Shown: positions 9,601 through 60,237 of the stretch, piece after piece
How the letters are laid out: every line of letters starts with the position of its first letter
Numbering within the stretch: the stretch's first letter is position 1
The notes under the pieces: generated by a model
Told to the model about the DNA's origin: nothing
Database searches by the model: none
The model's input: only the letters and a program-made list of their open reading frames with translations
Translations under genes and position numbers: made by a program
Source of the DNA: Liolophura sinensis
Taxonomy: Eukaryota > Mollusca > Polyplacophora > Chitonida > Chitonidae
NCBI RefSeq assembly: GCF_032854445.1
Contig: NC_088300.1
Coordinates: 67,306,984 to 67,370,983, forward strand
Length of the DNA: 64,000 nucleotides
Reading direction: 5' to 3'

Positions 9601-12600
9601 ATTACTGCACCCACAGACATCATACTTGGTACATTATTGACACTTAATGCGGGCTACAATGTCATGCATATAATTTCCGATTATGACACCAGGGGGGGCA
9701 CTTAGGTGGATAGTTTGCATAGCAGTCTGGCCCATATATCCATTATTACTGCACCCACAGACATCATACTTGGTACATTATTGACACTTAATGCGGGCTA
9801 CAATGTCATGCATATAATTCCCGATTATGACACCAGGGGGGGCGCTTAGGTGGATAGTTTACATAGCAGTCTGGCCCATATATCCATTATTACTGCACCC
9901 ACAGACATCATACTTGGTACATTATTGACACTTAATGCCAGCTACAATGTCATGCATATAATTCCCGATTGTGACACCAGGGGGGCGCTTAGGTGGATAG
10001 TTTGCATAGCAGTCTGGCCCATATATCCATTATTACTGCACCCACAGACATCATACTTGGTACATTATTGACACTTAATGCGGGCTACAACGTCATGCAT
10101 ATAATTCCGGATTACGACACCAGGGGGTCGCTTAGGTGGATAGTTTGCATAGCAGTCTGGCCCATATATCCATTATTACTGCACCCACAGACATCATACT
10201 TGGTACATTATTGACACTTAATGCGGGCTACAATGTCATGCATATAATTCCTGATTACGACACCAGGGGGGGTGCTTAGGTGGATAGTTTACATAGCAGT
10301 CTGGCCCATATATCCATTATTACTGCACCTACAGACATCATACTTGGTACATTATTGACACTTAATGCGAGCTACAATGTCATGCATATAATTCCTGATT
10401 ACGACACCAGGGGGGGTGCTTAGGTGGATAGTTTACATAGCAGTCTGGCCCATATATCCATTATGACTGCACCTACAGACATCATACTTGGTACATTATT
10501 GACACTTAATGCAGGCTATCACACGATTGCAATAATTCCCAATTCTGACACCAGGGGGCGCTTCTGTGAATAGCAGTCTGAATAACAGTCTGGCTCATAT
10601 CTCCATTAATAATGCACCTACAGACATCATACTTGGTAACATTTTTGTTGATATAAATTTTTTTCAGACAAAGTAGTGGTTTGTTAATTGGTTAAGAATC
10701 ATGAAACTAGTGAACAATTTTGTCAAGAAGTTCAGCTAAGAATTTAGTGCGATTTCAGATGGCATCGGACGTTTAAACGTTTATCTTTTGCTTAAGGCGT
10801 TAATGCTGGTTTACAGATCAGTTAACAGGGTTACTGCTGATTTTGACGCCACCTGCAGTCAGATGTTAAGACTCTTGGTGTCACTTTGTACTGTTTGGAA
10901 AGTTGTGTTTAATTACCAAGTAAAAACGGTGTGTATGAATCTGTATGAAAACTGCTTTTCACACTGCTATTCATAGAAGCGCATAGAGGCGCAATATTAC
11001 CGGAGACATAGCCCAATGCGTAATTAATAGAACTAATGACCCTAATAGCTAACTGCTAACTGCAGCAAGCTTTAAATGAAAAATTTTTCAAAAACAAAAA
11101 AGAACAAAGACAATTATAGCTGAAATGCTCACTTTAGATATAAAAATAAATGTGTCAGGTCTTGTTTCACTGGGTACGTAGGGTTACACAAAACAAAAAA
11201 TTGTATCATTTATGTTATGTGGACAGGAAAAGCCTAGCTGCTGCATCCCTGTATGTTAGGATGTACCACACACCTGAACTGACCTCCCATGCCCCTAAAA
11301 CACAGCAGCTGTCACAGATATCCTAATACATAAAGTGTTATAGCTTCTGTATGTTGACAAAATGCTCATGTCACATGGCCACTACCTAAACCAGCAATTC
11401 TGACACTTTATTTACGAAATCATGCCCTTTAAAAACATTAAACCGACTGTAATAAAAATCAAAATGAAATGCAACCTAATACATGATTGTATAAGTTGAA
11501 TATCTATATCGAAACATGTATCATGCACCAGTACAATTCTTTAATAGTTAGGCCTACATATTAAGTGCTGTCGGTAAAGAAACTAACATTGTATCATAAT
11601 TAGGGCAGGCTGGATGGTCAAAATAAATAGACTAATGCATGAATATGTATGTGTGCTTGGGGTTTAACATAGTACTTAATCATTTTTCAGTCATATGACG
11701 AGGAGGAGTCATTAGGTGTGTAGGCACTTTGTTCCTTCTTGTGGCAGGGCAAGTCCATGCTGCCAAAGTGCTGCCGCCACTAAAGCTTCATGCCGAAGAC
11801 ACCAGACATGACGCCCTGTCACATTATACTGACACCAGGTCAACTAGTCATGTTTCCTTGCTCTAACCTCTCACTGCTGAGCTCCAAGCGCGCCAGTAGC
11901 AAGTACCATTTTTGAAAGCCTTTGGCATGACCAGACCCAGGTTTGAGCTCAGGGTCTCCCTACTTCCAGGTGGACGCCCTAACCATTGGATCACCGAAGC
12001 AGTCAATCAACCAATGTATGAACACTGCAATAAGACACGTGTGTCTACTGTCTTTGTAATTCTAAGGTAGGTTTACTGTAAGCATTCTTCATTTTTGTAG
12101 GACTGCTGTGGTGGCCTAATGGTAAGAGTGTCTGCCTCAAAGCCAGGAGACCCGGGATCAAACTAATGTCACGTCATATACCGAAGACTTCAAAAATGGT
12201 ACTTCTTTCTGCCCTGTTTGGCACTAACCATCCAGAGGTTAGAGCAAGCTAGAAACAGGACTGGTTAGCCCGGTGTCAATACTGAACTAGCTTAACATGT
12301 CAAAACTTTCTCCAACTATAAATATGTTGTCAAGTATCTGCATGCTGCTGTGTATAAAACTGTTACCTCCTGCCCCACAATACCATATATGCATATGTTT
12401 CTATGAAGGAGTAAATTTAAATGGGGGCCAACATGCATGCTGCTATGGTACATCATTTTTATTTATTTATTTATTTGATTGGTGTTTCATGCCGTACTCA
12501 AGAATATTTCATTTATAAGATGACGGCCAGCATTATGGTGGTTGGAAACCGGGCAGAGCCAGGGGGAAACCCATGACCATCTGCAGGTTGCTGGCAGACC

Positions 12601-13600
12601 TTTCCACTGACAACCGGAGAGGTTTCCAGCATGAGCTGGATATGAACTCACAGCGACTGCATTGGTGAGAGGCTTCTGGGTCATTACGCTGCGCTAGGGC
12701 GCTAACCAACTGAGCAACGGAGACCCCCCCATAATTTTTAGTAGTTGAGTTAATTGCCAATACTCAAGAGCTTACAAATTGGTCTAGACACACAACACTG
12801 CTTTTAAAACACCAGTATGGGATAAATGGTTTGCAGAAATGTGCATTGCAAACATTACGCAAAACTTAAAAAAAATATAACAATTTTTCAGTCATATTAT
12901 GACGAGGAGTCATTAGGTGTGTGTACAGATGCTGTGTCTTCCTGGGGCAGGGCGAGTTCATGCTGCCAAAGTTCATGTTGCCCCACTGAAGTATCATGCC
13001 AATGACACCAGACATGAAACCCCACCCAGTCATATCATATTAGTTTCTGCATTTTATAAAGATGTGTGCAATTTATCAAAAACACGTACATGATGCAATC
13101 TGATTTTTGCCCGAATTAAAACACAGTCTGGTCAACTCACCTGTGAGCCTCCATCTTTCTGGTTTAGCTAGCCCAAGCAATCGTCTGACATCCGATAACT
13201 TGGGTGCTGCCCCTTTACGCACTGTAGCCTGGGCTGCTTTTGAGGGGACATTCGTGGGCGCAGTTTTTGTGGAGTAACGGCAGTTTAGTTTTTGGAGGTG
13301 TCGCTTGTCAACATTTCTTCTAAAAAATACTGCAACTGTTTTGACGTTAACACCATGACAGCTGCTATAATATCGACAAATTGCAGTCCTTATTACACCA
13401 CGTGTTTTGCAACACTGAGATCTTGCAATTAAATGACTCTGCATCTTGACCGAGGTAGAAATCGACCGATAGTTTACAGAGGGACAGGAGAGATGCTGTC
13501 TGCCCGGCATGACGCTTGTCCCCAGGCGAGATGTCCAGCCTGACCTCTCCGTACTCTTCCTCGCCCAACTCCGACAACATAATCCTAGCCATGACATCAT
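588..13600 (-). CDS. ABCB10: ABCB10-like mitochondrial ABC transporter gene, 9 exons, 3' end outside window
   Basis: Half-size ABC exporter of the mitochondrial inner membrane. In vertebrates ABCB10 supports haem synthesis and redox balance and is linked to biliverdin export. Nine exons with matching phases give 556 residues: an Arg/Ser-rich, acid-poor leader (about residues 1-110) typical of a matrix-targeting sequence, a six-helix transmembrane domain (about 140-445), then the start of the nucleotide-binding domain with Tyr482 as A-loop, Walker [10 protein letters not shown] at 508-516 and a Q-loop Gln at 556. The motifs [18 protein letters not shown] and AEERIGN are hallmarks of the ABCB8/ABCB10 group; TGLSGN with [10 protein letters not shown] favours ABCB10. 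The ABC signature, Walker B and H-loop must lie left of position 1. Introns hold many SINEs, a 66-bp and a 143-bp array. Family assignment is from remembered motifs, not a search. Confidence 0.93.
909..1115 (-). CDS. ABCB10: ABCB10 exon 8: NBD start with Walker A
   Basis: 207 nt, phase 1 to phase 1. Acceptor ...TTTACCCCTTAG|ATCC, donor CAG|GTGAGA. It encodes [19 protein letters not shown] (A-loop Tyr), Walker [10 protein letters not shown] and LRFYDPDQG. An upstream reading to 1149 is open but sits before the acceptor and breaks the phase, so I excluded it. Confidence 0.93.
1198..2058. repeat. 66-bp minisatellite, about 13 copies, open on both strands
   Basis: Tandem units share the core TCATCAGGCAAAGTCAT and are 66 bp long, so both strands stay open: 22-residue repeats read on each strand. 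One copy near 1660 has a 2-bp insertion that breaks the frame. The array lies wholly in ABCB10 intron 7 (1116-2767). Units differ mainly at GAG/GAT and CTTGATGG/GTGAAGG sites, suggesting higher-order duplication. Not a gene. Confidence 0.95.
2395..2488 (+). mobile_element. SINE-A fragment
   Basis: 5'-truncated copy carrying the family 3' end: CTGGCCACTGTTGCATAAG, GAAATATTCT, then CACCAATCAAATAAATAAAT. Confidence 0.85.
2768..2863 (-). CDS. ABCB10: ABCB10 exon 7: transmembrane-to-NBD linker
   Basis: 96 nt, phase 1 to phase 1, donor ATG|GTAAGC. It encodes [20 protein letters not shown] then [12 protein letters not shown] found it by frame and phase: it has no internal ATG and is short. Confidence 0.9.
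3478..3613 (-). CDS. ABCB10: ABCB10 exon 6: transmembrane helices 5-6
   Basis: 136 nt, phase 0 to phase 1, acceptor ...TATTTACAG| and donor CAG|GTAGGT. It encodes [20 protein letters not shown] and [20 protein letters not shown]. Confidence 0.92.
4950..5207 (+). mobile_element. SINE-A copy, tail duplicated
   Basis: Body and 3' end of the family, starting inside the head (GTGAGTTCAAGTCCAGCTCA). The tail CACCAAT(C/G)AAA occurs twice, at about 5137 and 5178, suggesting a short tandem duplication or a second partial copy. Confidence 0.85.
5218..5430. repeat. Irregular direct repeats with AAAGCTTAACCTT core
   Basis: The core AAAGCTTAACCTT followed by CATCC-like text recurs three times, with a fourth weaker copy, at roughly 60-85 bp spacing and separated by poly-A. 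It lies in ABCB10 intron 5. Confidence 0.6.
5519..5680 (-). mobile_element. SINE-A copy, truncated head
   Basis: Reads tail first on the plus strand: ATTTATTTGATTGATGTTTT, CGCCGTACTCAAGAATATTT, GACGGCGGCCAGCATTATGG, ending in the GGCAGACCTTCCCA region. Confidence 0.9.
5744..5890 (-). CDS. ABCB10: ABCB10 exon 5: AEERIGN coupling helix
   Basis: 147 nt, phase 0 to phase 0, donor TCT|GTAAGT. It encodes [19 protein letters not shown] and ends RGLFFGS. The AEERIGN-VRAF motif is diagnostic of ABC exporters of the B subfamily. Confidence 0.93.
6103..6262 (+). mobile_element. SINE-A copy, truncated head
   Basis: Starts at GTGGGAAGGTCTGTCAGCAA and ends with CACCAATCAAATAAATAAAT; in ABCB10 intron 4. 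Confidence 0.9.
6515..6795. repeat. Degenerate dispersed repeat (type D)
   Basis: Contains GGGTGAAAGAAACCAGAGTG and the AACCTCCAAGC type motif seen again near 28150, 33850 and 35160. Boundaries are poorly defined and the copy is old; the related block at 7170-7385 may be another. Confidence 0.4.
6852..6986 (-). CDS. ABCB10: ABCB10 exon 4: transmembrane helices 3-4
   Basis: 135 nt, phase 0 to phase 0, donor |GTAAGTTAA. It encodes [20 protein letters not shown] followed by [20 protein letters not shown], equivalent to the VSPNL...GRYLRKLT stretch of vertebrate ABCB10. Confidence 0.92.
7555..7757 (-). CDS. ABCB10: ABCB10 exon 3: [10 protein letters not shown] segment
   Basis: 203 nt, phase 1 to phase 0, donor |GTAAGAATG. 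It encodes [19 protein letters not shown] and [18 protein letters not shown], the intracellular coupling loop conserved in ABCB half transporters. Confidence 0.94.
8310..8513 (-). CDS. ABCB10: ABCB10 exon 2: transmembrane helices 1-2
   Basis: Acceptor ...TTCATCAG| and donor |GTAAGAATT bound 204 nt, phase 1 to phase 1. It encodes [17 protein letters not shown] (helix 1), the loop KVIDILQE and a second hydrophobic run [19 protein letters not shown] ending in QVSG, matching the ABCB10 pattern. Confidence 0.92.
8729..8922 (-). mobile_element. SINE-A copy, truncated head
   Basis: Minus-strand copy: ATTTATTTATTTGATTGGTG tail, GGCGGCCAGCATTATGGTGG body, head lost after GAACTCACAGCGACC. In ABCB10 intron 1. 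Confidence 0.9.
9305..10640. repeat. 143-bp tandem array, about 10 copies, with G-runs
   Basis: Units share CATCATACTTGGTACATTAT, then GTCATGCATATAATTCC and a G-run of 5 to more than 20 bases that varies between copies. Regular spacing is about 143 bp; copies 1 and 2 are longer because of their G-runs, and the last copies are diverged. It is within ABCB10 intron 1 and not coding. Confidence 0.95.
11655..11998 (-). mobile_element. SINE-C, near full length
   Basis: On the minus strand the tRNA-like head is followed by GGTACTTGCTACTGGCGCGC and the 3' end GTTAAACCCCAAGCACACA. The A-box-like GATCCAATGGTTAGG and B-box-like region GAGCTCAAACC are recognisable. Confidence 0.85.
12105..12295 (+). mobile_element. 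SINE-C 5' part
   Basis: Head with A-box-like TGGCCTAATGGTAAGAG and B-box-like GGGATCAAAC, then the family body up to GCCCGGTGTCAATACTGA; the 3' end is missing. It resembles a tRNA gene but continues directly into SINE body. Confidence 0.8.
12460..12726 (-). mobile_element. SINE-A, near full length with tRNA-like head
   Basis: Runs from the ATTTATTTATTTGATTGGTG tail to the head GTTGGTTAGCGCCCTAGCGC on the minus strand. The head has an A box, and the B-box-like GTGAGTTCATATCCAGCTCA follows. This is one of the most complete copies. Confidence 0.93.
12870..13045 (-). mobile_element. SINE-C 3' fragment
   Basis: Contains CAATTTTTCAGTCATATTAT and GACGAGGAGTCATTAGGTGT, matching the 3' half of the 11655-11998 copy. 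It ends about 100 bp before the ABCB10 exon 1 donor. Confidence 0.75.
13141..13600 (-). CDS. ABCB10: ABCB10 exon 1: start codon and mitochondrial leader
   Basis: The open frame begins with two adjacent ATGs (13600 and 13597); I chose the first. It encodes residues 1-153 and ends ...KPERWRLT just before a consensus donor (CAG|GTGAGT), phase 1. The leader is rich in Arg, Ser and Cys with almost no acidic residues, as expected for mitochondrial import. ARRLLGL-like text ([16 protein letters not shown]) matches the pre-transmembrane segment of ABCB10. Confidence 0.88.
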
Positions 13601-14213
13601 GCCACTCGAGTTTCTATCTCACCGTCTGCAACACTATCGGGTTTTAATTTCACCCATCGAGTACTCCGTCTCGTCCTCCCAAAAGCTTACAGCACATGTA
13701 CATGCCTCTCTGATCAGAGCACGCTGACTTTATGTAACTTCTGATACCGACTGACGAAAACTTCTCCCTGTTCAACAACCGGTAACTCTCCGATAATGGA
13801 TGATATTCCGGCACATAGTTATCTCCACTTGACCTGTTAAGGTTGCTCGGTACACAACATCTTGAAACGCAAAGATTAAAAAAAAAATTGTCAAATTATA
13901 GCTTTTATCATAGCAACAAATAATATGGAATAAGGAATGGGAGTCACTGAAGTAATTTTTGTCTAATCAGCATTTGAACTGCCTTCGCATAGGCAACATA
14001 AATTTGTAATGCCTATGCAAATCACACAGATGTATATGTATAGATTTTCTGTTCACTTGAGCGCTCGGATTTCTTTTAAAATATGCTACAGATAATTGAA
14101 AAAAAAATCATCGTCAGAATGAAAAATATTAAATAAAGGATAGGTGTCACCCAACTAGTTTTTTCCCTCACGTGAGTGCAAAATGTCTTTATATGACGGA
14201 ATGCACACATGTA
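13601..14213. other. ABCB10 5' flank
   Basis: No ORF that I support. Candidate promoter sequence for the minus-strand transporter. Two loosely similar blocks (about 13915-13970 and 14115-14165) may be an old duplication. Confidence 0.5.
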
Positions 14214-23000: not shown

Positions 23001-24855
23001 GATAATAATTCTTCAGGAGTCTCGTCATCTCCATGGCCTATGGTAAGTTAAACTTTACTTTTCATCACTAACATTCAAAAGCTGTTTTTCAGCTAAAATT
23101 TTCATGATAAAGAGCTTTTAAGGCCACTCATGTTTGCATATCAGCTGTGATTTTTGTTTCGGGCCTGATGGTGTTTGAGAATAATTATTTTGTTTGCTGA
23201 TACAATGGAAGAAGTTAATGAAAGTGTCATTTCTTTGAGGTTTAACATATGTAAAGGAGAACTAAACATACAGTGGGAGAAAATCAACTATATGCTTTCT
23301 CTTCACAGACCTCTTATAAGGCTGGGCTGAGCACAGAGGGTGGAGCATGTCATGTGGACCCTAAGCCATCTTGTAAGATAATAACAGGGAAAGTCACAAA
23401 TGACTTAAACATTTGCTTTTTGTGTGAATTTTATTGATATGGAAGTCAGTATTCTGACACGTGTTAGCCGGAGCCGTGTAACATGCACAAATGTTATAAA
23501 TATGCTGGAGCCATTTAACATGCATGAATGTTGTAATAATGCTGGAGCCAGGTAACATGCATGAATGTTGTAATAATGCTGGAGCCAGGTAGCATGCATG
23601 AATGTGATAAATATGCCGAAGCCAGGTTATTTGCATGAATGTTATAAATATGCGAGTTGATTTTATTACACCACGCATCCACCAAAAATTATTGCTTTGA
23701 GTCTATTCGTTTGTCATGCTTTCATTTCATTGCAATAACTCCTACAAATATTGTGTTTTTGATGTGCAGGTTCAAGTTGTGAAATGTCAGATCAAGTGCA
23801 AAAAGTTGAACTCACTTGATCTGTGCATAATTTTTCATATTTAACAATTACTTTGATAGGTCATTGGTTTCTAATCTATGAAATAACTGCTTTTAATATT
23901 ATTCTGTTTTGATTAAGTTTTGTGTGCTGTTTTGTGTGCGGCCCCTCAGATCAAGATCGTGCTTCGCTTTTGCATGTTTAGCGCACAGTCTGATTATTTA
24001 GCGCACAATTTGATTATTTGGAGCACGATCTGATTATTTAGCACAGAATCTCATTGTTTAGTGTACAGTCTAATTCTCGGAATCTGTTTGTATTAAGATG
24101 TATATTTATGGCCCATGTTACTTGGATTTATGGCTGTTCTGTGAATGTTAACTGGAGAAAATGAAAAAGAAACCTGTGACAAAGACATGTTCACATTGTT
24201 TTATGTGAACAGAATGCTCCTATAAGTCAGTGAAACTGTATGCTGACATCTTCTCAACAATTATTAAGTTCACCTGATTGAAAAAAAGTCACGATTTTTA
24301 TATTATAAACACCTGAGGGTAGCTATGTCTATTTCGCATTGAGGTGCAGCTTTATTTTTCAGCCACTAACATTACATGATCAAAAACTATATGCACTTTC
24401 ATTGAAAAGGAATATATGTAAATGCAAGCAAGGAAAGCTTCAAACAGTTTCAGGGAATGTTTCAGATATTAAGCCTTGCTTTAATGGCTTTGTTTATTCA
24501 GTTCCTGTTTTCTTGGATGATTTCAGCTAGCTGGACAGGCGACAAGGCCTCTGGTCTCTATGACGACGACTCATTGGTGATTGACTTACCTGTGACTGTC
24601 ATGCAGTACCTGACCAGTGAGATGGACATCAGCCCGAACTATGGCAAGGGCTGGACGGAGCTGGCTGCCCTCAAGGGTTACATCCACTCTAGGGTGAACC
24701 GCATCAAGGGCAACCACAGCATTGAGTCCCCATTTCAGTATCTTCTGGGTCAGCAAGAGTTTAGCGGTTACACCTATGGTCAGTTGAAGAGAGACCTCAA
24801 GATTTTACCCAGACTGGATATCCTCAGACGACTTCAGAATGGAAACTTTATGTAA
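19970..24855 (+). CDS. Death-fold protein gene, 5' incomplete
   Basis: Six phase-compatible exons (19970-20050, 21171-21365, 22069-22494, 23002-23042, 23309-23372, 24527-24855) encode 377 residues with no start codon in view. The middle (from the third exon) is rich in Ser, His, Gln, Pro and Gly and looks disordered. The last about 85 residues match a death-domain pattern: helix LPVTVMQYLTSEMD, then GWTELAALKG, a middle helix, TYGQLKRDL and RLDILRRL, stopping five residues later. C-terminal death domains occur in UNC5-like receptors, EDARADD-type adaptors and others; the LPVxxxxxLxxxMDxxxxxGxxW spacing resembles UNC5-type domains, but I see no ZU5, kinase, Rel or transmembrane segment. The family is seen in the fold only; function unknown. 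Confidence 0.75.
21171..21365 (+). CDS. Death-domain gene, exon b
   Basis: 195 nt, phase 1 to phase 1; acceptor TTTGGCAG|, donor ACAG|GTGAGT. It encodes an acidic, leucine-rich helical stretch including AVVFAGLSGEDLENGDELFQ and LSTLLMQILVRG. The ATG at 21110 is in the intron. Confidence 0.8.
22069..22494 (+). CDS. Death-domain gene, exon c (low-complexity region)
   Basis: 426 nt, phase 1 to phase 1; acceptor GTTTTCAG|, donor GAAG|GTTAGT (an atypical donor). It encodes 142 residues rich in His, Pro, Ser, Met and Gly, for instance HAPSHMTPPHQAS and GMSHQHGQHVYAQP. Base composition is distinctly more GC-rich than its introns, supporting coding. Confidence 0.85.
23002..23042 (+). CDS. Death-domain gene, exon d (41-nt micro-exon)
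   Basis: Acceptor CATATTTCAG|, donor ATG|GTAAGT; phase 1 to phase 0. It encodes NNSSGVSSSPWPM. An upstream acceptor at 22944 would keep the frame open and give a longer alternative exon. Confidence 0.75.
23309..23372 (+). CDS. Death-domain gene, exon e
   Basis: Acceptor TCTTCACAG|, donor CTT|GTAAGA; 64 nt, phase 0 to phase 1. It encodes TSYKAGLSTEGGACHVDPKP. Confidence 0.78.
23466..23655. repeat. 37-bp tandem repeat, 5 copies
   Basis: Units share AACATGCATGAATGTTGTAA and TAATGCTGGAGCCAGGTAAC; in the intron before the last exon of the death-domain gene. Confidence 0.9.
23970..24078. repeat. 21-bp tandem repeat, about 5 diverged copies
   Basis: Units of the form TTTAGCGCACAGTCTGATTA. Same intron as the 37-bp array. 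Confidence 0.75.
24527..24855 (+). CDS. Death-domain gene, last exon with death fold and stop
   Basis: Acceptor GATTTCAG|, phase 1, stop TAA at 24853. It encodes SWTGDKASGLYDDDSLVIDL, then the death-fold domain through RLDILRRLQNGNFM. GC-rich codons contrast with the AT-rich 3' flank. The ORF start at 24457 is intronic. Confidence 0.88.
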
Positions 24856-28651: not shown

Positions 28652-28752
28652 TCAGTGTGAACATTTCAGTCGTTTTTTATTTGCTTTGTTACGAACTCGT
28701 CGGTCAGGGAGTGCTGGCTTTGGGTCACAAGATGGTGGTTCCAAATTCAGTC
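28652..28752 (-). CDS. F-BAR-like gene exon 10, stop codon
   Basis: Acceptor CATTTCAG|, phase 1, then LNLEPPSCDPKPALPDRRVR and NKANKKRLKCSH followed by TGA. I found it by phase: the joined frame stays open for 32 codons and ends just upstream of two AATAAA signals. Confidence 0.78.
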
Positions 28753-31700
28753 CTGAAATGGTGCATATAAATCTTTTAACATGTTGCCGAAAGTTGAAAC
28801 AAGCTGAATCCAACACACATGTACATGTATGTACGAGTAGGCTTACATGTGTGTACGTGTAGACTTACATGTATGTATGAGCAGGCTTACATGTGTGTAC
28901 GTGTAGGCTCACACGTGTGTACGTGTAGACTTACATGTGTGTACCTGTAGGCTTACATGTGTGTACGTGTAGACTTACATGTATGTATGAGCAGGCTTAC
29001 ATGTGTGTACGTGTAGGCTTACATGTGTGTACCTGTAAGCTTACATGTGTGTATATGTAGGCTTACATGTGTGTATGTGTAGGCTTACATGTGTGTACGT
29101 GTAGACTTACATGTATGTATGAGCAGGCTTACATGTGTGTACGTGTAGGCTTACACGTGTGTACGTGTAGACTTACATGTGTGTACCTGTAGGCTTACAT
29201 GTGTGTACGTGTAGACTTACATGTATGTATGAGCAGGCTTACATGTGTGTACGTGTAGGCTTACATGTGTGTACCTGTAAGCTTACATGTGTGTATATGT
29301 AGGCTTACATGTGTGTATGTGTAGGCTTACATGTGTGTACGTGTAGGCTTACATGTGTGTACGTGTAGGCTTACATGTGTGTATGTGTAGGCTTACACAT
29401 GTGTACTTGTAGACTTACATGTGTGTACGTGTAGGCTTACACATGTGTACGTGTAGACTTACATGTGTGTACCTGTAAGCTTACATGTGTGTATATGTAG
29501 GCTTACATGTGTGTATGTGTAGGCTTACATGTGTGTACGTGTAGGCTTACATGTGTGTACGTGTAGGCTTACATGTGTGTATGTGTAGGCTTACACATGT
29601 GTACTTGTAGACTTACATGTGTGTACGTGTAGGCTTACACATGTGTACGTGTAGACTTACATGTGTGTACCTGTAGGCTTACATGTGTGTTTGTGTAGGC
29701 TTACATGTGTGTACGTGTAGGCTTACATGTGTGTACGTGTAGGCTTACATGTGTGTATGTGTAGGCTTACATGTGTGTTCGTGTAGGCTTACATGTACCA
29801 GTTTCAATAAGAAAATCAAAACTTCCAAAGCCAAGCACTAGGTAAAACTTACCTGTGTGGAGACTATGAGACTCGAAGGTGAGGTTGTCTTACCTGTGAT
29901 TGGACTAGGAGACTCAGAGGGGAGGTTCTCTTACCTGTGTGAAGACTATGAGACTCAAAGGGGAGGTTCTCTTACCTGTGTGAAGACTAGGAGACCCCGA
30001 GGGGAGGTCTGAAGACTATTAACCTCAGAGGGGTGGTTCTCTTACCTGTGTGAAGACTATGAACCTCAGAGGGGAGGTTCTCTTAACTGTGCGGAGACTA
30101 TGAAGGGGAGGCTCTCCTACCTGTGTGGAGACCACGAAACTCAGAGGGGAGGCTCTCTTACCTGCTTGAAAACTAGGAGTCTCTGAGGAGAGATTTTCTT
30201 ACCTGTTTGAAGACTAGGAGACTCAGAGGGGAGGTTCTCCTACCTGTGTGATGACTAGGAGAATGAGAGGGGAGGTTCTCTTGCCTGTGTGAAGACTGTG
30301 AGGTTCGGTGGGGTGGTTCCCTTACCTGTGTGAAGACTACGAAACTCAGAGCGGAGGTTCTCTTACCTATGTGAAGACTAGGGGGTTCGGAGGGGTGGTT
30401 CTCTTACCTGTGCGGAGACTACAAAACGAATGGGAGGTTCTCTTACCTGTGTGAAGACTATAAGACTCACAGGGGAGGTTCTCTTCCTTGGCCTCTTTCA
30501 GCACCTGGTCCGTGGCTATGGGTATGTCTGGATTGCTAGAGGATTTGATTACCGTATTACCTGTATCCACAAAGGCACAGTAGTACAGAGTGAGGCAACA
30601 TTTTAGAATATGCACGGCGCCAATACAATACACCCATAGGTGTACAGGTATATATCGCGTTATGTGGTTACCTTTAAAGTTACTTCACAGATGATATAAA
30701 AGACGAGAGTAAAAACCAAAGTAGTGACGAAAGTGTGAAATCGGTAACTGCTAATACGAAACCCGTGAAATCTCCCTTCTGTCAATCTACCTCATTTAGA
30801 TTATGTATACATTTTCATCTGTTTATGTAAACGCTTAAACGTCAACTGCTCTTAATACCATGGCAAAACACAGAATTACGTAGTTTAAAAGATGTGCCAT
30901 CATGTTAACTGCAATTTATTAAATGTCGCAGGTCAAGAATTAATTAACATTACGATTAATGAACAACCATATTGAAAAAATGACTGATTTTTACTACACG
31001 TAAAAAACCGTAACAATTTATACATGTACGTGTATAATAGTGCTTGTATGTATATCCTTCACTTAGTATAATTTCAGTGGAAGACTCCCGGAAGGGTTAC
31101 ACAAAAGGGTCCAAATCGCAGTACAACAGTTTTTTTCTGTGATACAGCACAGTTTGTGTACTACTATAGGTGCTTTTTGACCCGACACATACACCGATAA
31201 TTCCTTATATTATGATGTGTTATAGTGAGAATTGAACAATTATTTATTTGTGTATACACTTTGAATTTCTGGGACATCCCTGTCAATGAGTTGAGCGAAT
31301 GAAAGAAACTGTTTCCCCATATATATGGAGTTAGACAAGGTAGCCCAACAGTACGCACGTCCGTGAAAGCTGAGACTATTATGGGATAAAGCTGCGGAGA
31401 TATATGAATCCGCCCTGCAAATATTGTCAGTTACACATGCCAGATTAAAACCCCATTCCCATCAAGTCCGAATGCACAATGGATACTTCACGAGTACCAA
31501 GATTCGTCAAATTGCATAGTTGGGTGTGAATTCCCGTAAAATCTATTTTAGAAACAGTTTTCAAGAATCCTCAACGGTTACAACACTAATAAAATCGGTT
31601 GTACAACGGAAACGCAACGGTCAAGGCAACACTAACAAGGAACTGACCATAGATTACGAGGGAAGCCCCACTTGCGGTTTTACACAGTTCAGTGGCAATT

Positions 31701-34700
31701 GTAATCTACAAGAAAGAAGGTGTCACACAAGTTTTTTTGTCCAAGTAAATTCGTTTTTTGTTAATTAAATTGTTCACTAATTATCGCTCCTCGCCAAGCA
31801 GGTATTATTATTATTTGATAATAATGAGTCAGGGATAGAACAAGACCCTCAGACTTTACTCCCTCCATTTGCGAGATATATCATTATACATATATTTACG
31901 TATGGTGAATTAACATTCATTTCAGTTCTTCGACGGGCGACACTTGATAATCCAGGAAGATCAACGCTTTCCCACCAGTGCCAATCAACGCGACTAAACT
32001 GGCCGTAATCGTGAGACAACAATGAGATAATAGTGAACAAACATTGAGTTTCCCTTGCTCTTTGGTGGATACCCCGGTTTATCCCAACGGTTGTCTAACT
32101 GAGAAGCTCAGTTTTGCCGCCTCCATGAAAGTTTTGAACTTTTCAGGGTTGGTGGGACTGTGGCTTAGGACCGGTGCATGGTTTACTGATACTAAGAGAG
32201 TAGCGTAGAATCAGATGTTTCAAAAGCATTTTACTCGCTAGGGATGTTTATTGCAAAGGGGGCTGGTCGGATGTATATGGCCGTAGGCTTGCATAATAGT
32301 CCCAGATGTAAGTATATTCTATGATAGCCAGTATTACCGATGCTGCCTCTCCATATAGCAGGTGATAAAGCGTGAATGTACGTAACGCTACCATGTCTAC
32401 CTACATCTACCCCTATTTGTCAAACCGAATGTACAGTAGGCCTATTAAGCCTTAAAAAGTGTACTGTTCCACAATAGCCATACAAGACACCATCATGTGT
32501 TGTTACTTTATAGCCTAGGTGCAACTTGTGAAAACGGCGCCTACTTCTATGCAAGGTTTTCGTGGCTTTCCTAGTTAAACCACGTGGCCTTATATGGAGA
32601 TATGATAGAGCATTAAGAAGGCACATGTCATGCCACCGCAGAAATAAAGTTATCCGCATATACGAGAAAACGAGAAACTGGGCCAAACTGTCGAGCGCCT
32701 AGTTGTGTTCGACATAATTTGTACTGTGCTTTATAGATACGTCCCCATGGTGTTGTAAACGTGCACGTGGTTTTGGAAGTGCGTGAAGTTAGTAACGGGA
32801 GGATCATATAACGTTATAAGAGTACATAATGTTAAGAGCGCAAAGCTAGCCCTCTTTGAGTGGAAGCAGGTTTTTGTAGGCCTATCCTGGTTGTAGTGCT
32901 CTAGCTTCCTGCATGAATACCACTTTATACACACAACAATAGATCGCAACATCCGCATTGAAGAGTTTTAAAAGGGCTATCCTTATGCGTAGAATCTGCT
33001 GAATTGACTGGCTGTATCCAATACTTGACAAAATGGTAGTTGGGCAATGTTAAACCTTTGCCGAAAGGAAATGAGACATTCAGTTCGTCACGCCTACATA
33101 GTTCTGAAAGCAGAGTTGCACCGGATTACCTTTGTTTTCTTCCTTGTCGCCGGCCAGGTTTGCGGATAGTAATGGTGCTTTCACGGGGCTGGTGACCGGT
33201 GATGGAGGACGTTTTACATCGTCCTTCATAGGATCGTATTCCTACACCGAAAAAACAGATGTTTAGCATTTAAAAGGGTGATAATCTCTTTGCAACACAT
33301 AATAAACGTGTTTAATATTTAACTGTAATGCACTTAAATGTCATTATTCAACAACTAATAATACGACCGCTTCCTAATATTGATCACTTACATTAAAACA
33401 TTTAAATCACTCCGATTAAGCAATAAATCTATCCATTTAACTACATAAATGATTGTATTTATATAGCACATGTAAGTATTTATAACATACTGCATGTATT
33501 TATAAAATAAATCCATGTATTTATGAAACAAACGCGAGCGTTTAAAAAATAAACACATTGAACATGTTAAACATTAGCATTTATTTGTATATATAAAAGC
33601 AAGACGACTTTACTTTTGAACTCGTTAAGCAATTGTCATCAATCTTGCACAACAAGTTCACCTATATCTACAGCCCTCTTGTTTTCCAATGACCTTGTAT
33701 TATTTTTCAGGGTTGGTGGGCCTGTGTTTCCAATACCTTGTAATAACACAATAAATGCGTCTTGTATCTACTGTACATCTGGCGGATGGTAAGGTAGAAC
33801 ATTATTTTATTATATTTCTCAGGCCACGATAATGGTCTTTTCTTCCGTGTATAAATTGTGGATTTTTTCACTTATACGGCGGTGATCCGGTTGAGGGAAA
33901 TACGAAGAAAAACCATCTACTTTTGACAGGTACCTAACAAACCTCCTGACTTACATGCAACATCGCAGTCAAATCAGCGAAAGCTGAATTCGGGCAAAAA
34001 GGCCTGACAGTCGCAAAGAGCCATCCAACCGTGTACGTAGATGGGGGATGAACTAATTAACATACATTTATTATTTATTTATTTATTTGATTGGTGTTTT
34101 ACGCCGTCCTCAAGAATGTTTCACTTATACGACGGCGGCCAGTATTATGGTGGGTGGAAACCGGGCAGAGCCCGGCGGAAAACCCACGACCATCCGCAGG
34201 TTACTGGAAATTAACATACAACCTATATACCTCATGTAATACCTCATAGAGTGGCATCGCCACTTCTTCACAGTTTATCTTTAGCCAGCCTTCGACGAAT
34301 TGCTTAGCGTTCATCATGTGCGACTGTTTCCGTAAAAACACTACCATTCCGTTTTTAGCACCGCCTTGCCTGAAAAAACATACAGTCATTATGCAAAATT
34401 ATGTGAATGGAAAACACTGAGTAGTTCAGTAACGAATTCCACATCCTGTAAAGTACAGTAGCAAGTATATTTACTTATTTATTAGATTGTTTTTTTACGC
34501 CATTCTCAAGAATATTTCACTTATACGATGGCGGCCAGCACTATGTTGGGAGGAAACCGGGCAGAGCCCAGGGAAAACGCACGACCATGCGCAAGTTGCT
34601 GGCAGACCTTCCCACGCACAGCCGGAGAGGAGCCAGCATGAGCTGGACTTGAACTCACAACGACCGCATAGGTGAGAGGCTCCTGGGTCATTGCGCCGCG

Positions 34701-37700
34701 CTGGCGTTCTAACCACCTCGGACACGGAGGCCCTCGGTAGCAAGTATAAGGTATATATGGAAATATGGAAAGTGTTTTATATCTGTTGTCTGTAGGCTAT
34801 AGCTGGATCGAATTTCATGAGAATTCTTATAAGGATATTGCAAATGGAAAACATGGTTGATGACTTACGATTTCACAAGGCTGGTTTTCTCCAGCCAATC
34901 AGCAGCCATGGAATATGCTTCTTTCTTCTTCAAGAACAGTTCAAGTTCGTGTCGCATTAAGGTGGTTCTTGTGGCGCGGCAAAGCTGTTTTCAAAGTAGG
35001 ACAAAACACTACACATACTGGACTACTGTAATTAACACTTTCGAAATTTTATCTAAACATTTTCCTCCCATGTCACGAGGGGATTTAACATAATACACTG
35101 ATGGGTAGACAGATTCATTGCGATGTATTTTTATTTTAAAGTCTGTCGCTAAATAACGCGGCGTCAGGTTTATGGGTGGAGAAAACGGAAGTGCCCGGAA
35201 TAAATCACTGGCCTGATTTGATAAATACCTGACAAATCTCCTGATTTAAAGCAGCACCCGAATTAACCACGCAGCAAGAACTGGGTTCGAGCCTGCAGCC
35301 TTATTGATCTCAGATTGATCACCTATAGCTGCGGCCCTCAAGAACAAGACTTTATCTCAATGAGCCTTCGATTGTCCCTTAAGGATTAATCTGCATGCAG
35401 TAGGCCGTATGTCTGGAGGGGGTTGGTGTCTGTATTCTACATACTCAACATTTCAATATTTATTGGGATATATGCGGGGCTATAATAACAATTGTACCCC
35501 CCCCCCCCCCCCCCCCCCCGACCCCGGCCGAATGGTTAACGTGGTAGAGCACGTACGTGGGAAGGTCTGCCAGCGGACAGCGGGTGGTCGCGGGTTGCCC
35601 TGGGCTATGCTCACACCACAGAATGTTGTCATACGAACACCCAATCAAATAATTAAACTAATATTCATTTATTTGATTAGTGTTTTACCCGAAACCCAAG
35701 AACATTTCACCCATACGACGGCGGCCAGCATTATGATGGGAGGAAACCTGGCAGAGCCCCATGGAAACCCACGATCATCAGCAGGCTGCTGGCAGACCTT
35801 CCCACGTACAGCCGGAGAGGAAGCCAGTATTAGCTGGACTTGAACTCACATATATATATATTGTATAATACCTTCAGAAAAAATGGTCTTTCGTTTTGTT
35901 CGGTCTGGATGTACTTCTTGTATTCCATTCGCATTTTCTCAAGCTGGACTTTCATCTCCTCAGGCGCGTCCGAGTTCTGGAATCTCTGGCGATTTCTTGC
36001 AGTCAACTCTTTCTCCCGTTCTTTCATCGACAAAGCCATTTTCCAGCAATAGTAATATGCCTGAAAGTAGTGGGACTATGACTGATTGCTTTTTTGACGT
36101 AACAAATAAAATACAATACGTCTGAAACAATCCACGTTTGTGTTCACTCTGTGTTTATCTACTCCTCGCGTCTTGAGATTCACAATGTATATTCATTTAA
36201 CTCTCACGTCACGAAATTCAGAATATATTCATTCTATCCTCACCTCTCGAGATTCACAGTGCATTCATCTAATCCTCTCCTCTCGAGATTCACAGTATAT
36301 TCATCTAATCCTCTCCTCCCGAGATTCACAATGTATTGATCTAATCCTCACCTCTCGAGATTCACAATGTATTGATCTTATCCTCACCTCTCGAGATTCA
36401 CAATGTATTGATCTAATCCTCACCTCCCGAGATTCACAATGTATTCATCTAATCCTCACCTCCCGAGATTCACAATGTATTCATCTAATCCTCACCTCCC
36501 GAGATTCACAATGTATTCATCTAATCCTCACCTCTCGAGATTCATAAAGTACACAAAAAATGAATCTGTTAAATTTAACAGAAAGTCTGTCGTCTGAGTT
36601 ATGCCATAATGCATTCCGTTATTAAAACACAATATTGTGTCATATTCAACACACTATCATGTCCAATACAGTCTTTATGTTAAATTAATAGAATATGTGT
36701 TATATTTAACAGAATAATCAGCTGCAAAAAAAGAACACATTCCAGCATCACTCGGATAACACACAATTAACAGATTATTTTTTGAGAATATTGCCCCTTC
36801 TCACGTCTCGAAATTCACATTGTATTCATCTTATCCTCACCTCTCGAGATCGCTTAATTTCTCTCAGGATGTTCGTCCTGTGTTTCATCATTGCCACAAG
36901 ACCCAGGTCATACTTAGAATTAACAAGTGTTTTATGGTTGTTTTCCGACTCTCCTATGATTCTACAAAAGAAAAGTAATCATAAAACACATACAGTGAGT
37001 AGGCTATACGATACATGATATTTTCCCACAGGTCTAGTACTGTGCATAGTATAATGGGTTTGCAGGTTCATGAAAAGAAAGTCAATTTATACCGTACAAC
37101 ATGTTTGTCTATATTCCGTCAACAGTACACATGTACATGCATGTGTGTCACCAGTTGTTCAGATTTAAAATGTGTTACAATTTATGTCAAACATATGTCG
37201 TTGTGCCGGGGCTCGTTACATGAAACATTTTAAACTTTAGTCCAGATTGAAGAAACTATACCGGACTTAATTTTAGATAACGGCACGGACCATATTAGAC
37301 AAGACAGATCGAATCGGTTGTGGCATTTGAGACATATAACATATTTTGAGATAATGACCCCTCGTCGTCATTTGACTGAAAAATTGGTAAGTACGACGTT
37401 AAACTCCAACCATTAATTCATTCATTTATTTTGAGAAAATTTTAATACGTTAAGGTATAAGTACACATGCAGATGTTATAACAATAATTTCACTCGGCAT
37501 GTCTTGTTGTGATGAAGAGCCTACAAATGAAATGTGGTTGATTCGGTTAAAGAAGTCACTGTTCTCATCTGAAATAATAGCGATTTGATAAGATATTATA
37601 CTGCAAAAACAGATGCAGTCTGAGCAAAACAGCCCTTTAAACCTCATATGGTAATGCGCATTTTGTATCCAATTAGTTGTTTCCAGATAACAGTGTACGG

Positions 37701-39456
37701 TACACTGCATGACTTGCTCCCACATCATACGACATGGTGAGTTTTGGGACTTTCTATGAACACTACAGTACATATACTTGATATAAAGCAAATGTAACGT
37801 TAGCCAGTTTTGTATCAGAGTAGTTCCAATGCTGAAAGTTTGAAGGTTCCCGGTAAAAGCACATGTACATGATTTACATACTGTCGGATCTTGTCGATGG
37901 CTCCGTTTTTGATAGCCAGGGCTTCCTGTTCCTCACAGTTCCGGCACTGAGTCTGAGCTTCTCGTATGGCCTTCACTCCAAAGTCGTCAGAAAATGGATC
38001 GTCTGCATGAAAAATGGCCAAAAAAAAAAATTACCACTTTCTGATAAATAAACATCCGTACATGACCAATTCGTAAGATATTTTAATTATTAAAGAGTCA
38101 GCGGCCTGAATACAAATTAGGCTACAGTACATAGATAGTAAATCAGAGCAGGGACGACAGTGTGTTAGTTGGCAAATTGACGGTGAAATCTGAGATCTGT
38201 TTTTATCACATATGCATTACCAGTCGCACAGTATTGCATTTTCCGAGAAAACTATATGAGCAGGTCACTTTTGCCATGTTTTTTACGGAACAATGCACAC
38301 CACACATTAATTTCTTACCTCGACATTTCATCCACACCTTTTGCAAATCCTTCCGACAGTAGTAAGCTGCATCCCCACATTGAACTTCGTGCTTGACGAT
38401 ACATTTTATCATTTTCTTCAAATTCCTCAGGCCATAAAGGCTGCAACAATTTCCATATATCTTTTAGATACGTCTCAACTAATGGTAATTTAAAGCACAG
38501 AACATGTTATATAAGTCTGCAATTTAGACTGCACCCATTTTGGTTATGCACCGTAAAAGGGCTCGCGCAGAACAGAGTCATCCAATTATAACTCTGTTAT
38601 AGTTAATAGGTTTTGCTGTCTTGAATGGAATGGTGTATTGGTAAAACGTTTTGCTGTCTTGAATGGAATGCTGTATTGGTAAAACGTTTTGCTGTCTTGA
38701 ATGGAATGCTGTATTGGTAAAACGTTTTGCTGTCTTGAATGGAATGCTGTATTGGTAAAACGTTTTGCTGTCTTGAATGGAATGCTGTATTGGAAAGGTA
38801 ACAGAATGATATATGATGCAAAACATCAAACATTATTACTTTAAGGTCGAGGGATTGCAAGGCACCTAAAGTAATGGTGGCGGTGTCCACCGGGTTGTCC
38901 ATGTTTCGTCTACCCATAAACATGACTACCCTTAATTGGGTAGGGGCAACATTCTTGAGTATATGCGCGGTAAAAACTGGACAATCTGTTTGTTAAATAT
39001 AAAAGACTACTCCAAAGAGTGCAGATCCAGAGCAGCAACAACAGCGTCATAGTTTGCAAATCATCAGACGTAGGCTTAACCAGCGAATTAGGCCTATACC
39101 GGCTCTTGACAATTAATCTCAGTTAGAGTTTTATTCTCACCGTTCATGTAACTGCAAAAGTAGTAGCAATTTAAGAAATACATGCACTCACTGAACGCAC
39201 AATTATCAATATCACAGAGTGTAGCCTATTTAGTTAGGCCTATAGAACAAAGCATGCAGACCTTCCCATGTTTCGGCATGCATTTGTAAACTTGACTATG
39301 GGGGCCTACAGGCCCTATATTGCCTATGTGCCACAGATATTCGTAAGCGAGTCTTTCTGAACAAACACCATACACTTACTCAAACCCATCTTGTCTAATT
39401 TTCTCCAGTATTGTGGCGGTGGGACACAATTCTGTGGAGTTCTGATGTCCAGCCAT
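28652..39456 (-). CDS. F-BAR-like helical protein gene, 10 exons, complete
   Basis: Ten phase-matched exons encode 403 residues. Residues about 20-290 are almost entirely charged amphipathic helix. The start (EDLYGLRNLKKMIKCIVKHE then AAYYCRKDLQKVWMKC) follows the F-BAR pattern 'ill-defined acidic start, Leu-rich helix, YxKxLxKl', and AYYYCWKMALSMKEREKELT fits the third-helix region, so I infer a membrane-curving F-BAR-type dimer module. Residues about 300-330 are Pro/Ser-rich with PPSPVTSPVK, a possible proline-directed phosphorylation site. The C-terminus is basic (DRRVRNKANKKRLK). There is no SH3 domain. A helical coiled-coil protein of another family is the alternative. Two exons end within repeat units of adjacent minisatellites (see findings). 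Confidence 0.78.
28815..29795. repeat. 22-bp minisatellite, about 45 copies, higher-order structure
   Basis: Units of the form GGCTTACATGTGTGTACGTG plus TA, rich in alternating purine-pyrimidine. A variant (ACTTACATGTATGTATGAGC) recurs at about 28863, 28973, 29106 and 29217, showing duplication of multi-unit blocks. It lies in the last intron of the F-BAR-like gene. Confidence 0.96.
29838..30487. repeat. 41-bp minisatellite carrying splice donors, about 15 units
   Basis: On the minus strand each unit reads AGTCTTCACACAG|GTAAGAGAACCTCC..., that is the end of exon 9 plus its donor. About 11 of 15 units keep GTAAG; others read GTTAAG, GTAGGA or GCAAGA. The array begins inside exon 9 (30448-30487) and extends 600 bp into the intron. 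Confidence 0.93.
30447..30560 (-). CDS. F-BAR-like gene exon 9, ends in a minisatellite unit
   Basis: 114 nt, acceptor GATACAG|, donor CACACAG|GTAAGAG, phase 1 to 1. Encodes NTVIKSSSNPDIPIATDQVL and EAKEENLPCESYSLHT. Its last about 40 nt are one unit of the 41-bp array that follows. An inner donor (CCCCT|GTGAGT) would give TGA at the junction with exon 10, so I chose the outer one. Confidence 0.82.
30561..33129. other. Intron 8 of the F-BAR-like gene
   Basis: About 2.6 kb with no exon, SINE or array that I recognise. Confidence 0.6.
33130..33241 (-). CDS. F-BAR-like gene exon 8, Pro/Ser-rich linker
   Basis: 112 nt, acceptor GGTGTAG|, donor AAAG|GTAATC, phase 0 to 1. Encodes EYDPMKDDVKRPPSPVTSPV and LLSANLAGDKEENK. 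Confidence 0.82.
33845..34040. repeat. Degenerate dispersed repeat (type D)
   Basis: GACAGGTACCTAACAAACCT and CCTGACTTACATGCAACATC match the 35160-35345 copy. Confidence 0.45.
34072..34206 (-). mobile_element. SINE-A copy, strongly truncated
   Basis: TTTATTTGATTGGTGTTTTA through CCATCCGCAGGTTACTGG; it abuts the intron side of the exon 7 donor within 25 bp. Confidence 0.9.
34231..34369 (-). CDS. F-BAR-like gene exon 7
   Basis: 139 nt, acceptor TTTTTTCAG|, donor GAG|GTATAT, phase 2 to 0. Encodes GGAKNGMVVFLRKQSHMMNA and EGWLKINCEEVAMPLYEVLH. Confidence 0.85.
34468..34735 (-). mobile_element. SINE-A, near full length
   Basis: Tail TTATTTATTAGATTG through the head (GGTTAGAACGCCAGCGCGGC on the minus strand), including the B-box-like GTGAGTTCAAGTCCAGCTCA. 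In the intron between exons 6 and 7. Confidence 0.93.
34869..34984 (-). CDS. F-BAR-like gene exon 6
   Basis: 116 nt, acceptor AAAACAG|, donor TC|GTAAGT, phase 0 to 2. Encodes RTTLMRHELELFLKKKEAYS and ADWLEKTSLVK. Confidence 0.86.
35160..35345. repeat. Dispersed repeat (type D), best copy
   Basis: GCGTCAGGTTTATGGGTGGA, GATAAATACCTGACAAATCT and a head-like GAACTGGGTTCGAGCCTGCA at the right, so it may be another tRNA-derived SINE on the minus strand (B-box-like GGTTCGAGCC seen on the plus strand). Confidence 0.5.
35499..35519. repeat. Poly-C run, about 21 bases
   Basis: Homopolymer next to a SINE-A-like segment (GGGAAGGTCTGCCAGC at 35560). Similar C-runs occur at 55650, 59332 and 59420; G-runs at 9381, 9532, 14296 and 14372. 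Confidence 0.9.
35662..35852 (-). mobile_element. SINE-A copy
   Basis: ATTCATTTATTTGATTAGTG through GAGCTGGACTTGAACTCACA type head junction; it stops about 20 bp from the exon 5 donor. Confidence 0.9.
35872..36060 (-). CDS. F-BAR-like gene exon 5
   Basis: 189 nt, phase 0 to 0, acceptor CTTTCAG|, donor AAG|GTATTA. Encodes AYYYCWKMALSMKEREKELT and a helix ending QTEQNERPFFLK. Confidence 0.87.
36150..36546. repeat. 36-bp minisatellite carrying splice donors, about 11 units
   Basis: Minus-strand unit AATCTCGAGAG|GTGAGGATTAGATGAATACATTGTG (split at the donor-like site), matching the end of exon 4 and its donor at 36841. Seven units keep GAGAG/GGGAG plus GTGAGG. About 240 bp of AT-rich unique sequence separates the array from a single unit at the exon. 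Confidence 0.92.
36841..36961 (-). CDS. F-BAR-like gene exon 4, ends in a minisatellite unit
   Basis: 121 nt, acceptor CTTTTGTAG|, donor CGAGAG|GTGAGG, phase 2 to 0. Encodes IIGESENNHKTLVNSKYDLG and MMKHRTNILREIKRSRE. The last bases (TCTCGAGAG) and donor are shared with the 36-bp array at 36166-36545. Confidence 0.83.
37350..37428 (+). mobile_element. SINE-B/C 3' tail fragment
   Basis: TCGTCGTCATTTGACTGAAA and GTACGACGTTAAACTCCAAC, the shared B/C tail. Confidence 0.7.
37882..38002 (-). CDS. F-BAR-like gene exon 3
   Basis: 121 nt, acceptor TCATGCAG|, donor CA|GTATGT, phase 1 to 2. Encodes DDPFSDDFGVKAIREAQTQC and EEQEALAIKNGAIDKIR. Confidence 0.85.
38319..38440 (-). CDS. F-BAR-like gene exon 2
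   Basis: 122 nt, acceptor GTTGCAG|, donor CGAG|GTAAGA, phase 2 to 1. Encodes LYGLRNLKKMIKCIVKHEVQ and CGDAAYYCRKDLQKVWMKCR. Confidence 0.85.
38608..38798. repeat. 37-bp tandem repeat, 5 copies
   Basis: Core TTTTGCTGTCTTGAATGGAA, TGCTGTATTGGTAAAACG. It lies in intron 1 of the F-BAR-like gene; the periodic minus-strand ORFs here are artefacts. Confidence 0.93.
39380..39456 (-). CDS. F-BAR-like gene exon 1, start codon
   Basis: ATG in the context CCGCCATGG, close to the Kozak consensus, then AGHQNSTELCPTATILEKIR; donor TTTGA|GTAAGT, phase 2. Confidence 0.82.

Positions 39457-43503: not shown

Positions 43504-60237
<16,734 letters not shown>

What the first reader, a model, noticed from the sequence alone, without database searches (positions are those of the whole stretch)
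29838..30560. Exon end and its splice donor multiplied into a 41-bp array of decoy donors
On the minus strand the last about 40 nt of exon 9 plus its donor (CACACAG|GTAAGAGAACC) form the repeat unit of a minisatellite that continues about 600 bp into the intron. About 11 of 15 units keep GTAAG. The coding end of exon 9 (ENLPCESYSLHT) is therefore itself one repeat unit. The first decoy donor (exon end 30408) would extend the exon by exactly 39 nt in the same phase, adding 13 open codons; the next (exon end 30367) introduces a TAG. Copy-number change at this minisatellite could therefore move the 5' splice site and alter the protein between individuals.
Basis: partly seen in the sequence, partly recalled or inferred. 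Interest (0 to 1): 0.85.

Follow-up and report, generated by a model that had tools for sequence, protein, structure and literature searches.

The report
Splice donor copied into minisatellite
In a chiton gene the end of an exon and its splice signal have been copied some fourteen times in a row into the following intron, and similar arrays lie beside several other exons of the same genome, making a natural test bed for how cells choose among near-identical splice sites.

Summary
Confirmed: on the minus strand the last 39 nt of exon 9 (30560-30447) plus its donor are the first unit of a 41-bp minisatellite (29848-30485) with 14 further donor-like sites in the intron; 11 of 15 sites keep GTAAG. 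A hand-built ten-exon model gives an open 399-residue frame with nine GT-AG introns. Flanks suggest one birth event: slippage between exonic GGAAG and intronic GTAAG (shared AAG), leaving the presumed old intron start (GTAAGTTTTACC) behind the last copy. It is not unique. Exon 4 of the same gene founded a second, 36-bp array, and 9 of 23 CAGGTAAG arrays sampled on contig C1 begin as copies of an apparent exon end (exons recognised by eye), six with at least weak family support, including RNA polymerase III RPC1 and a GH31 glucosidase. Decoys that keep GT match U1 about as well as the real donor, but donor motifs are not preserved better than control words in other arrays. Best reading: ordinary minisatellite birth across a 5' splice site, tolerated because the exon-side donor survives. 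Use of decoys and variation between individuals are untested. Closest precedent: human IFI6 (6-16).

The parts
28652..39456 (-). host gene, ten coding exons: 39456-39380, 38440-38319, 38002-37882, 36961-36841, 36060-35872, 34984-34869, 34369-34243, 33241-33130, 30560-30447, 28752-28652
   Evidence: open 399-residue frame plus stop, nine GT-AG introns, phases fit (borders of exons 2 and 3 were reset after to fit the frame); single copy in the genome; no Pfam or PDB relative; no transcript evidence
30447..30560 (-). exon 9, 114 nt; donor CAG|GTAAGA
30447..30487 (-). exonic founder unit (GGAAGAGAACC...CACACAG), 38 of 41 identical to the array consensus
29848..30485 (-). 41-bp minisatellite carrying the exon end and donor; 15 donor-like sites including the exon's own
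30408..30446 (-). in-phase 39-nt extension if the first decoy is used (+13 codons, 412 aa)
30326..30407 (-). next two decoys (exon ends 30367 and 30326): TAG at 0 and 41 nt from the last exon junction, 392 aa without the last exon's tail
29853..30325 (-). eleven further donor-like sites (30285 GC and 30087 TT lack GT); the same TAG lies 82-514 nt before the last junction, NMD predicted
29841..29859 (-). last copy CACACAG|GTAAGTTTTACC: presumed original intron start, 9 of 9 match to the U1 consensus, strongest predicted pairing of the series (-12.1 kcal/mol)
28822..29796 (-). second, unrelated 22-bp array filling most of the rest of the same intron; unit contains CATGTAAG
36841..36961 (-). exon 4; its end ATCTCGAGAG|GTGAGG is the apparent founder of a second array
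36143..36551 (-). 36-bp array (11.3 copies) in the intron after exon 4; the 36 nt across the exon 4 junction match its unit at 34 positions
28652..28752 (-). exon 10 (last coding exon), acceptor AG ending at 28753

Best explanation
A minisatellite was born across a 5' splice site. Shown from sequence: the repeated unit is the last part of exon 9 plus the first five intron bases, flanked by GGAAG (exon side) and GTAAG (intron side); the exon side keeps the coding copy and the far end carries a GTAAGTTTTACC flank. Inferred: a slippage or end-joining event at the shared AAG duplicated the 41 bp, and further slippage or unequal exchange expanded it into the intron. Such duplications are tolerated because the copy next to the coding sequence keeps exon and donor intact, and they have happened beside a number of exons in this minisatellite-rich chiton genome. 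The exon-side donor is probably the one mostly used; the intron copies are near-equal U1 targets that drift neutrally and may be used at low level, giving a +13-residue form (30408), a form without the last exon's tail (30367, 30326) or NMD targets (the rest).
For: Unit structure and flanks; gene model; exon copy 38/41 to consensus. Direction exon to array is supported where the exon tail is conserved: the L014 exon matches RNA polymerase III RPC1 through the repeated tail (E 3e-9), the L015 exon matches GH31 glucosidases likewise (5e-25 in PDB; 3.8e-14 in Pfam). Recurrence: exon 4 of the same gene (34/36), and 9 of 23 donor-word arrays listed on C1 1-80.2 Mb, with weaker family hits for L016 (choline dehydrogenase 3e-4) and L017 (deoC 2e-3), L035 (TSP1 3.5e-4) and L037 (PHD 1.4e-3). 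No special preservation of donor words. In 9 of the 12 arrays examined the frame running on from the exon meets a stop within 26 codons (the 12 are E9, E4 and ten loci, one of which, L011, was later dropped), so wide decoy use would usually be damaging.
Against: Nothing here shows which donor is used. Decoys with GT pair with U1 about as well as the real donor (-9.4 to -12.1 kcal/mol, real -11.0), so sequence strength alone does not explain use of the first. With duplicated strong donors an intron-proximal preference has been described (recalled, not read here). In three of the 12 arrays decoy use would keep the frame open. The window's own two arrays rank 0.82 and 0.86 for donor preservation, though two arrays prove little. 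No relative of the gene was available to show the state before the array, and the gene model has no transcript or homologue behind it.
Confidence: 0.68

Rival explanations
1. Functional multi-donor switch: several copies are used, and array copy number tunes isoforms or NMD level of the gene.
For: All 12 GT-bearing decoys pair with U1 about as well as the real donor, the last one best; the first decoy is in phase and open; in L015, L035 and L037 the frame stays open through 5, 7 and 4 decoys, all in phase.
Against: Donor words are not better preserved inside arrays than control words; 9 of 12 arrays hit a stop early if decoys are used; two of the 15 sites here have lost GT.
Confidence: 0.15
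2. 5' splice sites are preferred birthplaces of minisatellites (for example through U1 binding, R-loops or transcription), not merely tolerated ones.
For: On C1 1-80.2 Mb the donor word CAGGTAAG forms 23 triple-tandem arrays against 6, 6 and 6 for three same-composition words (arrays counted by eye in the listings), more than its 2.06-fold excess as a single word: 1.86-fold per site, one-sided p = 0.034.
Against: The excess is small and the p value marginal; single-word counts were measured for only one of the three controls; gene regions may simply hold more arrays; the share of exon-founded arrays (9 of 23) is no higher than the share of CAGGTAAG sites that would be real donors if the single-word excess reflects them (about half).
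Confidence: 0.2
3. Exonisation the other way round: an intron minisatellite came first and the exon grew into its first unit.
For: The exon 9 tail lies in a protein with no Pfam or PDB relative, so its age cannot be tested here.
Against: In L014 and L015 the repeated exon tail is conserved with proteins of known structure, so the exon came first there; the perfect donor flank behind the last copy fits an original donor.
Confidence: 0.08

Closest known systems
Human IFI6 (6-16, G1P3) minisatellite with multiple splice donor sites (Turri, Cuin and Porter 1995, NAR 23:1854)
   Same: A minisatellite that provides several splice donors in one transcript. I saw only the title, in other papers' reference lists; the paper is not held. 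That it is the IFI6 gene and sits at an exon end is recalled.
   Different: There, by its title, several donors are provided to the transcript; a unit of about 12 bp is recalled. Here the unit is 41 bp with up to 39 nt of coding exon, use is unknown, and the same arrangement recurs beside several exons of one genome.
Intron creation by tandem duplication of AGGT-containing exon segments (Hellsten, Gao and Lynch, Zhuo; recalled, not read)
   Same: Tandem duplication spanning a splice-site-like sequence.
   Different: Here an existing donor is multiplied inside an existing intron; no new intron is seen.
Ordinary minisatellites born between short direct repeats (Haber and Louis model; recalled, not read)
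   Same: Unit bounded by a short direct repeat (AAG).
   Different: The founder happens to include a coding exon end and a 5' splice site.

Membership tests
Minisatellite (tandem repeat, unit about 10-100 bp) | Head-to-tail units of 10-100 bp, several copies | tested here: met
   period 41, 16.1 copies
Minisatellite (VNTR) | Copy number varies between individuals | not testable with these tools
   one assembled haplotype only
IFI6-type donor minisatellite | First unit overlaps an exon end and its donor (feature recalled) | tested here: met
   given the hand-built gene model
IFI6-type donor minisatellite | Most units keep a consensus donor | tested here: met
   13 of 15 GT, 11 of 15 GTAAG
IFI6-type donor minisatellite | More than one copy is used as a donor in mRNA | not testable with these tools
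   no transcript data
Intron creation by tandem duplication | A new intron absent from relatives | not tested
   no related animal genome is held; intron 9 has its own distant acceptor

The most novel reading that the evidence does not exclude
In chitons 5' splice sites are preferred birthplaces of minisatellites, and the resulting multi-donor introns (perhaps eighty or more in this genome, by extrapolation) act as copy-number-tuned splice-site arrays that vary protein ends and NMD output between individuals.
Probability: 0.08. Interest if true: 0.88.

Novelty: new variant of a known kind. Interest (0 to 1): 0.55.

Why it matters
Series of up to 15 near-identical donors in native genes, with coding exon ends as founders, would let the open question of what singles out one 5' splice site among equals be tested directly, and would show that splice sites are not shielded from minisatellite birth. 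If decoys are used, copy number becomes a heritable dial on isoforms.

Tried and rejected
Function from donor conservation: not supported, donor words are no better kept than control words (19 of 23 donor arrays usable, as L001, L003 and L010 lack the word in their consensus and L018 gave no array of 3.5 copies; 13 of 14 control arrays usable, L024 lacking its word). Both sets were chosen for three exact copies of the word, which biases both alike. The nine exon-founded arrays taken from the same output average rank 0.61 (my arithmetic). E9 and E4, not chosen by the pattern, rank 0.82 and 0.86, but are only two.

Rfam on the window at gathering threshold: no match. Pfam and PDB for the 399-residue protein: none. 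Paralogue to show the array-free state: none, all ten matches are this gene's own exons. PDB for L016, L017 and L020 exon peptides: none; PDB for L035 and L037: best E 0.21 and 0.083, not significant. Pfam for the L016, L017, L020 and L005 peptides and for the L014 and L011 frames: none; Pfam for L036 and L011 peptides: none; NCBIfam for L020, L005 and L011: none.

Batch Pfam scan of open frames near the array starts (20 of the 23 arrays; 111 sense frames, 17 families; 115 antisense frames, 14 families; E up to 0.01): repetitive frames score on both strands (antisense ELK 1e-19 and Annexin 2e-8, not traced further; the sense tRNA_SAD 1.2e-11 comes from an array-derived frame of L012). I kept only GH31 from it.

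L011 was first taken as exon-founded by eye and dropped: its exon suffix scores 4 against a null maximum of 7. L017's exonic match is short (9 nt), L005's and L036's are 10 and 12 nt; the null positions were not restricted to AG|GT sites, so these short matches are weaker than their scores suggest. In the other 13 of 23 arrays I saw no exon; for L003 the array reaches almost to the edge of the fetched stretch and L001 and L013 start with degenerate units, so these are not judged, and noncoding exons would be missed. The two other donor-like arrays in the window (23470-23653 and 57848-58401) show no exon founder when read. Acceptor-founded arrays were not counted: acceptor words are too weak for the pattern test.

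Full report
Where it is. The window lies on contig C6 of a 609,464,459-base genome in 632 contigs. Contig C1 is 96,433,062 bases. The chiton assembly published as Liolophura japonica has 632 scaffolds, the same longest scaffold and 609,495,693 bases in all (PMC11068029, passages read), about 31 kb more than is held here. The identification by size is mine. A correction to the species name exists (PMC12441733; only the start of its abstract seen, in the listing).

The gene. Ten minus-strand exons (39456 to 28652) join to a 399-residue frame with nine GT-AG introns and matching phases. The model is hand-built: the borders of exons 2 and 3 were reset after a first try to make the frame fit; exon 9 and its neighbours needed no change. 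The gene is single copy and has no Pfam or PDB relative. Intron 9 is 1694 nt and holds 54 GTAAG, against 5 in the 7911 nt of the gene's other eight introns, because it is almost wholly two arrays: the 41-bp one and an unrelated 22-bp one.

The array. Fifteen donor-like sites from 30447 to 29853; steps are 41 nt except for one each of 39, 34 and 70. The exon's last 41 nt match the consensus at 38 positions. The exonic unit begins GGAAG, the later ones GTAAG or a variant of it, and the last donor runs into TTTTACC. The simplest history is one duplication between the two AAGs, then expansion. The presumed original donor, CAG|GTAAGT, is then the one at the far end; the exon's donor today is the junction form CAG|GTAAGA.

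Consequences if decoys are used. 30447: 399 residues. 30408: 412. 30367 and 30326: 392 residues, losing the last exon's tail, with the stop 0 and 41 nt from the last junction, so NMD would probably be escaped. All others: the same stop 82-514 nt upstream, NMD predicted by the usual 50-55 nt rule (recalled).

Not a single case. In the same gene, exon 4 ends ATCTCGAGAG|GTGAGGATAAGATGAATACAATGTGA, 34 of 36 identical to the unit of the array at 36143-36551; a degenerate second copy (donor-like site at 36805) and about 250 bp of other sequence lie between the exon copy and the main array. Genome-wide, three CAGGTAAG spaced 12-42 nt occur 895 times against 285 for the reversed word and 249, 47, 211 and 121 for four other words of the same composition. 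These are hits, not arrays. The listing stops after 100 hits, at 80.2 Mb of C1; in that stretch I counted by eye 23 donor arrays, and 6, 6 and 6 for the three control words that were listed. All 23 were fetched. In 10 an apparent exon end stands at the first unit; one (L011) failed the similarity test, leaving 9 of 23: L005, L014, L015, L016, L017, L020, L035, L036, L037 (suffix scores 9 to 36 against null maxima of 5 to 7). Six have family support: L014 RPC1 3e-9, L015 GH31 5e-25, L016 choline dehydrogenase 3e-4 and L017 deoC 2e-3, L035 TSP1 3.5e-4 and L037 PHD 1.4e-3; the last four lie below those models' curated cut-offs, as may be expected of 39-52 residues. L005, L020 and L036 rest on open frame and repeat match only. 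Scaling 23 arrays per 100 listed hits to 895 hits gives about 200 strict arrays, perhaps 80 exon-founded; this is extrapolation, and C1's first 6 Mb hold 12 of the 23, so the sample is uneven.

Is it more than tolerance? The single word is 2.06 times its reversed control (30,137 v 14,616), arrays 3.8 times; per site 1.86-fold, one-sided p = 0.034. This is suggestive only. Donor words inside arrays are not specially preserved.

Literature. Five searches aimed at this showed in their listings no account of donor-founded minisatellites in chitons or as a recurrent class; one search matched 4,751 papers of which 20 were listed, one search returned only papers on another subject, and subscription papers are not held. 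Two more searches served the assembly and splice-site competition (listing only). The IFI6 precedent is known to me by title and recall.

Verdict. The recurrence, twice in one gene and in about four in ten donor-word arrays sampled, is what makes it worth following.

Noticed in passing
28822-29796: A 22-bp array of 44 copies (unit with CATGTAAG) follows the 41-bp array in the same intron, so the intron is almost wholly tandem repeats with 54 GTAAG.
   Followed up: partly
36551-36805: About 250 bp between the exon 4 copies and the main 36-bp array contain short inverted motifs (CTGTTAAATTTAACAG and the like); perhaps an inserted element that split the array.
   Followed up: no
L015, L035 (C1:71465600-71467600), L037 (C1:80154700-80156500): Donor arrays with units of 39, 45 and 45-48 bp stay open in the exon's frame for 92, 122 and 71 codons, so decoy use would add repeated peptides.
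   Followed up: partly
C1:0.49-6 Mb of G000: 12 of the 23 donor-word arrays listed on C1 lie in its first 6 Mb, a subtelomeric crowding as known for human minisatellites (recalled).
   Followed up: no
45236-45925 (+): CCDC85 family gene (Pfam E 1.1e-69).
   Followed up: no
811-13895 (-): Exons that look like a half-size ABC transporter of the ABCB10 kind (by eye), with 66-bp and 144-bp arrays lying among them.
   Followed up: no
24406-24855 (+): Weak death-domain match (E 0.0098).
   Followed up: no
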